From the NCBI RefSeq assembly GCF_031458255.1, contig NZ_JAVDYC010000001.1:3419001-3483000 (forward strand): a stretch of DNA of 64,000 bases, written 5' to 3'. Below are positions 4,225 to 60,387 of this stretch, piece after piece. Positions within the stretch are counted from its first letter, which is position 1. The number at the start of each line of letters is the position of its first letter. The notes beneath the pieces were generated by a model. It saw only the letters and a list, made by a program, of their open reading frames with translations. It was not told the DNA's origin and did no database searches. The position numbers were made by a program, and so were the translations under genes. Source of the DNA: Catenuloplanes niger. GTDB lineage: Bacteria; Actinomycetota; Actinomycetes; Mycobacteriales; Micromonosporaceae.

Positions 4225-5175
4225 ATGCCGCAGATCGTCCTGCTCGTCACCTCTCCGCGCCTGCCCGCGGGCCTGCTGACCGCCGACGCCTGGGACCTGG
4301 TCCGCCGCCACCCGGTGCTCGCCTCCGAGGAGAACGCGCAGGTCCACGCGCTGCGAGCGGCCGGCGCGGAGGTCACCGTGGTCGACGCCGACCCGGCGCC
4401 GGTGCTGGCCGCCGCGGCCGCGCACGGCACCGTGGTCTGGCTGGCCGGGCCCACCGGTGACCAGGACATGGCCCGCACGCTCGGCCTGCGCCTGGCCCGC
4501 GAGCCCGGCCTGGCCGAACTGGAGCTGCGCTACGGCTCGTGGGACCCGCCGGGCGCGCGCCTGCTGGACGCGGTCACGGTGATCGACCGGCTGGCCTCCC
4601 CCGGCGGCGACCCGTGGAAGCGGCAGCAGACGCACGCCACGCTCGCGCAGTACCTGCTGGAGGAGGCCTACGAGGCGTACGACGCGATCGAGACCGGCGA
4701 CCTGGACACGCTGCGCGAGGAGCTCGGCGACGTGCTGCTCCAGGTGGTGCTGCACGCGCGCCTGGCCGAGGAACTGCCGGACGGCGAGCGCTGGACCGTC
4801 GACGACGTGGCCGGCACGCTGGTCGAGAAGATGATCCGCCGCAACCCGCACGTCTTCGCGGACACCGAGGTCAGCGGCGTCGAGGAGATCATCGAGAACT
4901 GGGAGCAGATCAAGCGCGCGGAGAAGTCCCGCGCGTCCGCGATGGACGGCATCGCGCTCTCCCAGCCCGCGCTCGCGCTCGCCGCCAAGATCCTCCAGCG
5001 GGCGGAGCGCGCGGGCGTCGCCGTACCGCTGCCGGAAGCCCTTGATCTCGGCTCCGAGCTGCTGCGCCGGGTGGCCGCGGCGCGCGCCGCGGGTCTCGAC
5101 GCCGAGGCCCTGCTGCGCCGCGCCGCCCTGGCCCACGCGGAGGCGATCAGAACCGCGGAACAGGAAACGGCATAG
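4225..5175 (+). CDS. mazG: MazG-family nucleoside triphosphate pyrophosphohydrolase
   Basis: MazG hydrolyses (d)NTPs to NMP plus pyrophosphate and acts in nucleotide house-cleaning. The protein is 316 residues from ATG 4225; an alternative ATG at 4213 adds four residues, and neither has a clear Shine-Dalgarno. The MazG domain begins near residue 113 (DAVTVIDRLASPGGDPWKRQ). It carries the paired metal-binding acidic motifs LLEEAYEAYDAI (near 146) and LREELGDVLLQVV (near 162), followed by NPHVFAD and a helical C-terminus. The N-terminal 110 residues (VLLVTSPRLPAGLL) form an actinobacterial-type extension of unknown role. It starts 23 nt after the lipoprotein gene, so the two may be co-transcribed. 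Confidence 0.93.
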   Translation: MPQIVLLVTSPRLPAGLLTADAWDLVRRHPVLASEENAQVHALRAAGAEVTVVDADPAPVLAAAAAHGTVVWLAGPTGDQDMARTLGLRLAREPGLAELELRYGSWDPPGARLLDAVTVIDRLASPGGDPWKRQQTHATLAQYLLEEAYEAYDAIETGDLDTLREELGDVLLQVVLHARLAEELPDGERWTVDDVAGTLVEKMIRRNPHVFADTEVSGVEEIIENWEQIKRAEKSRASAMDGIALSQPALALAAKILQRAERAGVAVPLPEALDLGSELLRRVAAARAAGLDAEALLRRAALAHAEAIRTAEQETA

Positions 5176-5489
5176 GACCGGGTTCCCGCTTCCGGCGTGG
5201 GCGCGCTCCGAGTGCTCCCGCGGGCACCGGTCGGCCGCGGGCGGCCTCCCTGCCGGTCCCGCCGTGGTCCGGCACACCCGCGACCCGCCCGGCCCGCACG
5301 ACGCTCGCCCCGGCCCGCGGTCCGGCGCGCGGCGGCGACCGGGGATCGGCCGGCGCACGTCACGGGCCCCTGACCGGCCCGACCGGCACCAGCGCCGCCT
5401 CCGGCGAAGGCAACGACTCCAGGCGCACGTCACGGAACCCCGGCCGGCGCGCGTCACGAAGATCAGGCGCCGGGGCGCGGGGCTCGCGA
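5176..5489. other. Gene-free GC-rich spacer between mazG and the SDR gene
   Basis: No supported gene. The first part (5182-5257) is a copy of a dispersed repeat also found at 35272-35346. The second part carries three copies of GGCGCRCGTCACG at 5352-5364, 5422-5434 and 5446-5458. The region lies at the 3' ends of two convergent genes. Confidence 0.6.
5182..5257 (-). repeat. Dispersed ~76-bp intergenic repeat, copy A
   Basis: On the minus strand this matches copy B at 35272-35346. The first 44 nt are nearly identical (one difference by eye) and the last 18 nt (CACGCCGGAAGCGGGAAC) are identical, with a variable segment between. It begins 7 nt after the mazG stop. Confidence 0.8.
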
Positions 5490-59193: not shown

Positions 59194-59232
59194 CGCGTCC
59201 CGGAACCGACCCAGCGTGATCAGGAGATGAGA

Positions 59233-59547
59233 ATGGCCACGGTAGTGGAACAGCCGCAGGACGCCGGCCGGCCCAGCCAGGACACCGGCACGGCCGAGGC
59301 GACCGCGTCGGCGGCGATCCTTGAGATCCGCTCCCGGATCAACGAGATCGACGATGCGATCATCGCGCTCTGGAAGGAGCGATCGTCGCTCTCTCAGCAG
59401 GTCGGCAAGACGCGTGTCGCGTCGGGTGGGACGCGTCTCGTGTTGAGTCGGGAGCGGGAGATTATGGAGAAGTTCCGCGAGGCGTTGGGGGCGGATGGGG
59501 CGCAGGTTGCTCTTCTTCTGCTGCGTGCGGGGCGGGGGCCTCTTTAG
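59233..59547 (+). CDS. Chorismate mutase (AroQ type)
   Basis: 104 residues from ATG 59233 (AGGAG at 59222-59226; an ATG at 59227 would overlap it). It converts chorismate to prephenate for Phe/Tyr synthesis. The AroQ helix contains ILEIRSRINEIDDAIIALWKER followed by SLSQQVGKTRVASGGTRLVLSREREIMEKF, ending RAGRGPL as in other actinobacterial stand-alone mutases. Codon use changes from about 59405 onward to many T- or G-ending codons (GTTGCTCTTCTTCTG), unlike the first half. Confidence 0.92.
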   Translation: MATVVEQPQDAGRPSQDTGTAEATASAAILEIRSRINEIDDAIIALWKERSSLSQQVGKTRVASGGTRLVLSREREIMEKFREALGADGAQVALLLLRAGRGPL

Positions 59548-59553
59548 TTTTTC

Positions 59554-59822
59554 TTGCGGTTTCGTCGGAGGGGGGTGTGGGGGCGATCGCGCGCACGACG
59601 GGCGGTCAGGCTTGATCCCGTCGTGCGCGCGATCGCCCCCACACCCCAGTGGTCGCTTTTGGGTTATACGGCGGCGGCCTTTTAAGCGGGGTCTTGGAGT
59701 AACCACCACCTGACACCGACCCGGGCACCACCCTCACACATCGTGGGTGCTCGTAAGCACCGTTATTGACCCCGAGGTCTCCGGTGCCGGCCGCGAGGCG
59801 GTCAATTTTCAGGGTGCCTGGC
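59554..59822 (+). repeat. Inverted non-coding element, left copy
   Basis: Begins TTGCGGTTTCGTCGG and ends near AGGGTGCCTGGC. It contains a perfect 31-bp palindrome (59572-59602 with 59617-59647, 14-nt loop) and a second hairpin GGTGCT-CGTA-AGCACC (59746-59761). The reverse complement of 60046-60315 aligns along its whole length with few gaps. Confidence 0.85.
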
Positions 59823-60045
59823 TGAGCATCAGCCCCCATGGGCACCTTCCGCTTCTTTCACCCTCCCGCCCCACACCGCCGCTCCGCGCCTCCCAAGCAC
59901 CCGTAGTCGTCACACCCACCCGACAGCCCATAGGGAAGGGCCGGCGGGTGAGCACGCTGAGGGCCGGGGGCGGGGCGGAGGCGCGAAGCGCCGGGGAACG
60001 GGGGACGTGACGGGCCGGGACAGCGGCACGGGGGGTAAAGGCCGA

Positions 60046-60315
60046 CCAGGCACCCTGAAAAACGACCACGGCGCGACCGGCACCGGAGACCTCGGGGCCA
60101 ATAACGGCGCTTACAAGCACCCACGAAGTGTGACGGTGGGGGCCCGGGTCGGTGTGGGGTGGGCGGCAACACCAAGACCCCGCCTAAAATGCCGCAGCCG
60201 AACAACCCAAAGCGACCACATGGGGTGTGGGGGCGATCGGCCGCACGACGGGATCAAGCCTGACCGCCCGTCGTGCGGCCGATCGCCCCCACACCCCCAC
60301 CCGACGAAACCGCAA
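60046..60315 (-). repeat. Inverted non-coding element, right copy
   Basis: On the minus strand it begins TTGCGGTTTCGTCGG. It contains a perfect 31-bp palindrome (60222-60252 with 60267-60297), whose 14-nt loop is identical to that of the left copy. The stem differs by two compensated pairs (CGC versus GCC at the centre). A second hairpin with one G-T pair is conserved. Confidence 0.85.
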
Positions 60316-60387
60316 CCAACAGAAATCACACAAAACGAAAGCAGGGCCCAGCAAAAACCACCGGACCCCACCTTCGGTGACAAACGA

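What the first reader, a model, noticed from the sequence alone, without database searches (positions are those of the whole stretch)
59554..60315. Head-to-head pair of ~270-bp non-coding elements with 31-bp perfect palindromes
The 840-bp gap between chorismate mutase and opp2 is an inverted repeat of a long element. Each copy has a perfect 31-bp stem with the same 14-nt loop and a second hairpin. Between copies the stem differs at two positions on each arm in a compensated way. Neither copy codes for protein. It could be a structured RNA pair, a non-autonomous mobile element, or a protein-binding cruciform.
Basis: seen in the sequence. Interest (0 to 1): 0.78.

Follow-up and report, generated by a model that had tools for sequence, protein, structure and literature searches.

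The report
Mobile hairpins landing after stop codons
The spot holds two copies of a DNA hairpin from a family not found in the databases and papers searched here: it is scattered through soil actinomycete genomes, usually just after the end of a gene, and keeps its loop almost letter for letter while its stem changes but stays paired, so it looks like a small mobile element recognised through its folded loop.

Summary
In detail: 59554-60315 is an inverted repeat whose ends each carry a perfect 31-bp stem with the same 14-nt loop. A second copy lies 2.8 Mb away (99% identical, one hairpin lost); one sister genome lacks the element at both places. The hairpin, not the 270-bp unit, is what is conserved: 43 of 121 family genomes have it. 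Stems covary in 20 of 26 pairs; the loop is exact in 153 of 161. Most copies start about 20 nt after a stop codon, in sense (93 of 106; 52 of 57). In several Micromonospora, copies are translated in frame inside one methyltransferase gene. Stem imperfections are strand-asymmetric (G.T 8, A.C 53 distinct events on the loop-sense strand), which suggests that the opposite strand is selected to fold, as RNA or single-stranded DNA. Best reading: a loop-recognised, stem-tolerant mobile palindromic element. It behaves like REP and Rickettsia palindromic elements but fails the REP features tested. The enzyme is unknown, and a role in the mRNA of the upstream gene is not excluded.

The parts
59554..60315 (.). 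whole inverted-repeat element between two convergent genes; a second copy (one hairpin lost) lies at G000:C1:6290785-6291482
59572..59647 (+). left hairpin: 31-bp stem, 14-nt loop; the loop-sense (GGTCAGGCTTGAT) strand is +
   Evidence: model R1, 92.1 bits
59603..59616 (+). conserved loop CGGTCAGGCTTGAT
   Evidence: exact 14-mer in 153 of 161 collected hairpins
60222..60297 (-). right hairpin, same family, opposite orientation; stem changed at two pairs with compensation
   Evidence: 93.1 bits
60253..60266 (-). conserved loop of the right hairpin
59554..59571 (+). outer end of the element (TTGCGGTTTCGTCGG...), also seen at both ends of the second copy
   Evidence: by eye for the second copy
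60298..60315 (-). other outer end, reverse complement of the first with a few differences
59649..60220 (.). interior: inverted arms 59658-59707/60162-60211 and 59720-59840/60027-60147 (82% complementary) around 186 nt; similar to a hairpin-less inverted repeat in the same gap of sister genome G001
   Evidence: (0 of 300 shuffles)
59227..59547 (+). chorismate mutase gene; the left hairpin starts 24 nt after its stop codon
60388..61401 (-). oligopeptide ABC transporter ATPase gene, convergent; the right hairpin lies 90 nt beyond its stop codon

Best explanation
A family of small non-coding mobile palindromic elements. The unit is one hairpin of about 76 nt with a near-invariant apex (mostly GGG-CGGTCAGGCTTGAT-CCC) on a 20-31-bp stem of variable sequence; it also occurs as convergent pairs 0.2-0.7 kb apart, of which the window element is one. 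Shown: dispersal, amplification of a paired unit in one genome, loop conservation, stem covariation, placement just after stop codons mostly in one orientation, and in-frame occurrence inside one gene family. Inferred: an unknown factor recognises the folded single strand with the complementary loop (AUCAAGCCUGACCG, 'strand B'), as RNA or single-stranded DNA, through the apex and not the stem sequence; that folded strand is the form copied or inserted; and copies persist mainly where they harm least, after stop codons.
For: Second copy 99% identical between a thiolase and an IclR gene; G003 has about 61 bp in place of the 840-bp window gap and 102 bp in place of 770 bp at the second locus. 43 of 121 family genomes carry the hairpin, 78 show none. 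In G034 the 0.3-kb paired unit aligns over nearly its full length at nine places (query included) and in part at six more, at no place over its full length in the five other genomes of its genus (hand count). By eye, copies of G034 and G158 share one stem type each, G012 mostly. Stem: 96.4% of cells paired, 20 of 26 pairs changed on both sides, 0 of 500 shuffles. Loop exact in 153 of 161. Placement: 93 of 106 with an upstream gene seen are in sense to it, median 21 nt; 52 of 57 in nine G-handle genomes other than G034, median 19.5 nt; 84 upstream genes fall in 36 clusters. Strand asymmetry on the loop-sense strand: G.T 8 against A.C 53 distinct events (p=3e-9), C.T 22 against A.G 7 (p=0.008), so G.U and G.A are tolerated on the other strand. 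Pairs within 1 kb among the rows listed: 9 of 9 convergent (hand count, better strand of each hairpin; five are one unit family of G034).
Against: No enzyme was found; Y1_Tnp is not associated. No target-site duplication could be defined: the intergenic flanks of the empty sites do not align, and at the one G034 locus compared the congeners have no shorter gap, so that is absence of the unit and not a clean empty site. Many Micromonospora copies sit after orthologous genes in several species (clusters of up to 12), so part of the spread is vertical descent. The sense orientation (42 to 7 in tandem gaps) is not explained by harm-avoidance alone and would also fit a role in mRNA. Not all genomes have one stem type: G109, G050 and G005 hold several. 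The asymmetry could have a mutational part; no single genome has enough events to test it; a less stringent tally is weaker (24 against 83 in 161, 17 against 44 in 70 representatives).
Confidence: 0.55

Rival explanations
1. A cis-acting 3'-UTR RNA element: the hairpin in the mRNA of the upstream gene (loop GGUCAGGCUUGAU) is bound by a protein that sets mRNA stability or processing, like a bacterial counterpart of the histone stem-loop (comparison recalled).
For: Sense orientation and a start about 20 nt after the stop codon in most copies; covariation and near-invariant loop; 42 sense to 7 antisense in tandem gaps.
Against: Imperfect pairs on that strand are mostly A.C and C.T, not G.U and A.G, the opposite of what RNA selection on the mRNA strand predicts. 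Found in only 43 of 121 genomes. Upstream genes are unrelated. In the methyltransferase gene the second copy is antisense.
Confidence: 0.2
2. Transcription terminators (one per convergent gene) spread as terminator cassettes.
For: Position after stop codons; convergent pairs between convergent genes.
Against: A run of four T within 12 nt 3' of the hairpin occurs in 0 of 212 on the sense strand and 1 of 212 on the other. One copy lies 6 nt after rpoB and 41 nt before rpoC, where a strong terminator would be costly. A terminator needs no fixed 14-nt loop (general knowledge).
Confidence: 0.12
3. REP/BIME elements mobilised by a RAYT transposase.
For: Small palindromes, opposite-orientation pairs, downstream of genes, occasionally inside genes, as described for REPs (PMC3733652, passages).
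Against: Y1_Tnp (PF01797) is found in 2 of the 21 hairpin-positive genomes among the 61 (positives) and in 11 of the 40 others; stems are longer than the 6-13 bp given for GTAG families; GTAG, CGTC or their complements lie within 10 nt of an end in at most 33 of 212 for any one motif and side.
Confidence: 0.05
4. The strand asymmetry reflects DNA repair, not function: the loop-sense strand folds during replication and mismatch repair removes G.T from it.
For: G.T is the depleted class. That actinobacterial NucS acts on G.T, G.G and T.T is recalled, from no call. T.T is seen once and A.A not at all among distinct events, which is uninformative.
Against: Among distinct events G.G 6 is not below C.C 5, and A.G 7 is depleted against C.T 22 although A.G is not a recalled NucS target. 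The numbers are small.
Confidence: 0.08

Closest known systems
Rickettsia palindromic elements (RPE)
   Same: Palindromic dispersed elements found also in frame inside protein-coding genes (PMC10969869, passages)
   Different: About 76 nt against about 150; clear mid-gene insertions were seen in one gene family only; the conserved part is a loop; different phylum; the CGTC end reported for R. conorii RPEs is not a constant feature
REP / BIME (GTAG and CGTC superfamilies)
   Same: Downstream of genes, between convergent and tandem genes, in opposite-orientation dimers, occasionally inside genes (PMC3733652, passages)
   Different: Stem 20-31 bp of variable sequence with a conserved 12-14-nt loop, against 6-13-bp stems with many loops of 2-3 nt in GTAG families; no constant tag; no RAYT association
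MITEs, e.g. the terminator-like SPRITE of pneumococcus (PMC10969869, passages)
   Same: Short non-coding inverted-repeat elements that amplify; the G034 unit behaves like one
   Different: Each end is itself a full hairpin; single hairpins also disperse; no target-site duplication or parent IS found; GC-rich, where MITEs are said to be typically AT-rich
Integron attC sites (recalled, no call)
   Same: Hairpin soon after a stop codon, with the bottom strand as the functional folded strand
   Different: attC conserves boxes at its base and varies the tip (recalled); here the tip is conserved. No integrase was searched for

Membership tests
REP (GTAG/CGTC) | unpaired GTAG or CGTC tetranucleotide at one end, in nearly all members | tested here: not met
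   within 10 nt outside the ends of 212 distinct hairpins: GTAG 4 (5') and 0 (3'), CTAC 1 and 3, CGTC 10 and 12, GACG 4 and 33
REP (GTAG/CGTC) | associated RAYT (Y1_Tnp) gene in the genome | tested here: not met
   2 of 21 hairpin-positive genomes among 61
REP (GTAG/CGTC) | short stem, 6-13 bp in GTAG families | tested here: not met
   about 20-31 bp in nearly all copies; yardstick from PMC3733652
REP (GTAG/CGTC) | located downstream of coding regions, opposite-orientation dimers | tested here: met
RPE-like coding palindrome | in-frame insertion into protein-coding genes | tested here: met
   PF02636 methyltransferase: two inserts in each of three Micromonospora proteins; no matching insert in the 12 relatives aligned, one of which (L219) is not readable at the first site. 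Three further loci with a hairpin in a PF02636 frame
RPE-like coding palindrome | insertion into many unrelated genes | tested here: inconclusive
   16 of 126 hairpins overlap a called gene. Of the seven loci checked, six are the methyltransferase and one (L071) lies near the end of a thiamine-phosphate synthase frame, past its domain; six loci were not checked
MITE | multiple dispersed copies, absent at orthologous places in relatives | tested here: met
MITE | target-site duplication | tested here: inconclusive
   none seen by eye in the G034 and G000 flanks, but empty-site flanks do not align
MITE | terminal repeats matching a transposase-coding parent | not tested
Rfam RNA family | match above a curated gathering score | tested here: not met
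   0 matches in the window; the sub-threshold matches, best of them microRNA families, fit any long hairpin
intrinsic terminator | T-run directly after the hairpin | tested here: not met
   0 of 212 sense, 1 of 212 antisense

The most novel reading that the evidence does not exclude
A new class of bacterial mobile element that moves through its folded strand B: an RNA (a SINE-like retroelement using a host or borrowed reverse transcriptase) or single-stranded DNA is recognised only by a 12-14-nt apical loop, so the stem is free to drift as long as it pairs, and copies are set down about 20 nt after stop codons in the sense direction by a targeting step linked to transcription or replication.
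Probability: 0.25. Interest if true: 0.85.

Novelty: new variant of a known kind. Interest (0 to 1): 0.62.

Why it matters
It is a large natural experiment in which a hairpin's loop is fixed and its stem is free, mostly in genomes without the REP transposase. The direction of the imperfect pairs tells which strand is probably read, an approach that could be applied to other bacterial repeats whose mode of movement is unknown. If the enzyme is found, it would be one that recognises a folded single strand with little regard to stem sequence.

Tried and rejected
Rfam: nothing curated. Plasmid and phage records by blastn and viral contigs by exact apex: no match, so no vehicle found. Y1_Tnp (PF01797): not associated. 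Phylum-wide: 2 of 296 genomes by covariance model (strict filters, 16 candidates scored per genome) and 2 of 396 by pattern with one mismatch; the two positives are the same, G000 and G007, both of the family. These draws hold few or no genomes of the groups where the exact pattern was found outside the family (Trueperella and an Actinomycetaceae MAG), so they only say that the hairpin is rare there. Replication strand: loop-sense strand codirectional with replication in 48 of 67 hairpins of 13 genomes (positions typed from the listed rows, terminus assumed opposite dnaA); dropped, since genes are biased the same way (recalled). Homology of the G034 interior through a shared GGAGTNACC core: against the window interior 26, 176, 110, 279 and 49 of 300 shuffles score as high; against the G001 repeat 172, 15, 1, 181 and 15 of 300; one of ten stands out, so not claimed. 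Terminator reading: no T-run, and a copy inside rpoB-rpoC. Wobble tallies: a first tally with all collected hairpins gave G.T 24, A.C 83; a flexible tally that included the internal loop gave 55 against 95 over all and no asymmetry in the G-handle set (27 against 29); after leaving out the seven apical pairs, which hold that loop, it is 9 against 75 and 3 against 19. Half-copies of the left arm just upstream of the hairpin: 12 of 210; not pursued. A search of fetched loci for clean empty sites of single hairpins gave 31 candidate rows, most with 14-40 nt left in place of the hairpin; not interpreted.

Full report
Observation. The 840-bp gap between a chorismate mutase gene and a convergent Opp-type ABC ATPase gene is an inverted repeat, 59554-60315. 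Each end has a 31-bp perfect stem around the 14-nt loop CGGTCAGGCTTGAT, the two hairpins facing each other; their stems differ at two adjacent pairs, compensated. Further in, the arms are 82% complementary. No Rfam family reaches its threshold (weak matches). Six open frames across the gap have no Pfam match.

Own genome and sisters. The window lies in a single-contig 9.74-Mb genome. Its genus is by inference Catenuloplanes: genome G002 of the same genus has a contig of the same length, with the hairpin at the same positions, as a named Catenuloplanes japonicus record. A second copy, 99% identical and in the other orientation, lies at 6.29 Mb between a thiolase gene and a convergent IclR-type gene, 6 to 7 nt after the thiolase stop, and has lost one of its two hairpins (by eye). 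A degenerate single hairpin lies at 1.39 Mb. In sister genome G003 the chorismate mutase/ABC gap is 61 bp, and the second locus has 102 bp between aligned flanks where G000 has 770. At the second locus the other sisters have other, unrelated gap lengths. Sister G001 has in the window gap an inverted repeat similar to the window interior (0 of 300 shuffles) but without the hairpins (no model hit in G001). So the hairpin is a module separable from the longer repeat.

The hairpin family. An alignment of 19 hairpins gave 96.4% paired cells and 20 of 26 pairs with changes on both sides, against shuffled means of 70.5% and 12.8, 0 of 500 shuffles reaching either. The covariance model finds it in 43 of 121 family genomes, 19 of 44 genera, with 1 to 29 matches each (some matches are one hairpin hit on both strands, so hairpin numbers are lower). 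No match in plasmid, phage or viral sets. The loop is exact in 153 of 161 collected hairpins (which collected by similarity to that loop); genome G034 has a variant apex. By eye, copies of one genome tend to share stem types (G034 and G158 one each, G012 mostly one; G109, G050 and G005 several) and genera differ, as expected from separate amplifications.

Pairs. Among the rows listed, a capped list, all nine pairs closer than 1 kb are convergent (hand count); five of them are the G034 unit. That unit has two hairpins with about 130-150 bp between them. With one such locus as query, blastn finds the unit over nearly its full length at nine places in G034 (query included) and in part at six more; in the five other genomes of its genus only hairpin-sized pieces match (hand count). 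At that locus the congeners have no match to the unit, but their gap between aligned flanks is not shorter, so no clean empty site was seen. The interior of these units is not convincingly related to the window interior.

Placement. With a codon-usage gene caller written for this purpose, 126 hairpins in 120 named loci gave 16 overlapping a called gene; of the other 110, 106 had an upstream gene in view, 93 in sense and 13 antisense, median 21 nt from stop codon to hairpin for the sense ones. Of 91 with both neighbours seen, 42 were tandem sense, 37 convergent, 7 tandem antisense, 5 divergent, although divergent gaps are the commonest gaps of 100 bp or more in these loci (107 of 351). A second set, 80 hairpins from ten G-handle genomes, one of them identical in sequence to a hairpin of the first set, repeats this: outside G034, 52 of 57 are sense, median 19.5 nt, none divergent; in G034, 14 of 17 are sense and 2 divergent. 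The first set is mostly Micromonospora and includes orthologous places: the 84 upstream genes within 130 nt fall in 36 clusters, the largest 12. They are unrelated chromosomal genes. One copy lies 6 nt after rpoB and 41 nt before rpoC.

Inside a gene. In three Micromonospora records two hairpins in opposite orientation lie inside a PF02636 methyltransferase gene and are translated in frame. Twelve relatives aligned show no matching insert, though one of them (L219) is read in another frame at the first site. Three further loci carry a hairpin in a PF02636 frame. In L071 the hairpin lies near the end of a thiamine-phosphate synthase frame.

Which strand. If a stem is needed on one strand, G.U pairs are tolerated there and A.C are not; on the complementary strand the same G.U reads as A.C. 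On the loop-sense strand, near-perfect stems show G.T 7 and A.C 59 (153 of 161 hairpins; 78 representatives: 4 and 34); before that filter it was 24 and 83. With the apical seven pairs left out, distinct events are G.T 8 against A.C 53 (p=3e-9) and C.T 22 against A.G 7 (p=0.008) over 232 rows, which are 212 distinct sequences, 20 of them present under two labels; the G-handle subset alone gives 3 against 18 (p=0.0015), C.T 13 against A.G 4 (p=0.049). So the strand with loop AUCAAGCCUGACCG appears to be the one selected to fold. It is antisense to the upstream gene, which speaks against a simple mRNA role. Mutational strand bias is not excluded, but transcription-linked deamination of the coding strand (general knowledge) would push the other way. 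A mismatch-repair reading (NucS, recalled) is not favoured by the G.G/C.C and A.G/C.T counts, which are small.

How it most likely works. Shown: dispersal, separability, loop conservation, stem covariation, strand asymmetry, stop-codon placement. Inferred: an unknown enzyme or host factor recognises the folded strand B by its apex and copies or inserts it; insertion or survival is best just after stop codons. Not shown: the enzyme, the intermediate, a target duplication, and whether there is any benefit to the host.

Compared with known kinds. Genomic behaviour matches REP/BIME (PMC3733652, passages seen) and, for the in-frame copies, RPEs (PMC10969869, passages; an original RPE paper was not held). 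Tested REP features fail: no constant GTAG or CGTC tag, stems of about 20-31 bp, and Y1_Tnp in 2 of 21 hairpin-positive genomes against 11 of 40 others. It works like a dispersed mobile palindrome but is not filed as REP or RPE. Paper searches that could have shown a prior description (listings only; one search listed 15 of 107) showed none; they cover only the open library, so a description elsewhere is possible.

Noticed in passing
L014:1589-2123 (G001) against window 59548-60387: Sister genome holds in the same gap a diverged inverted repeat with CTTGGAGTAACC in both arms but no outer hairpins
   Followed up: partly
L120 about 370-440, L097 about 5160-5220, L313, L104, L016: Partial direct copies of the hairpin's left arm, some ending near the loop, just upstream of the full hairpin (12 of 210 hairpins); could be slippage or abortive copying
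   Followed up: partly
L083:5621-5743; L021 near 1495-1570: Hairpin between rpoB and rpoC in one Micromonospora record; genome G040 (L021) shows a similar left flank by eye, not checked by family search
   Followed up: partly
L295:788-856 (G001): At the locus of the second copy, G001 has a different near-perfect 32-nt palindrome with 5-nt spacer: possibly another palindrome family in convergent gaps
   Followed up: no
L249-L259 (G034): The G034 unit carries a further long palindrome (GGAGTTACCGCC...GGCGGTAACTCC in several copies) at its centre, and many flanks carry CTAG/CTAA-like letters next to the outer hairpins (by eye)
   Followed up: partly
L071:6279-6995: Hairpin overlaps the end of a thiamine-phosphate synthase frame beyond its Pfam domain, in a gene convergent to the hairpin's upstream gene; five other loci (L070, L099, L104, L129, L170) show a similar overlap, not checked by Pfam
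   Followed up: partly
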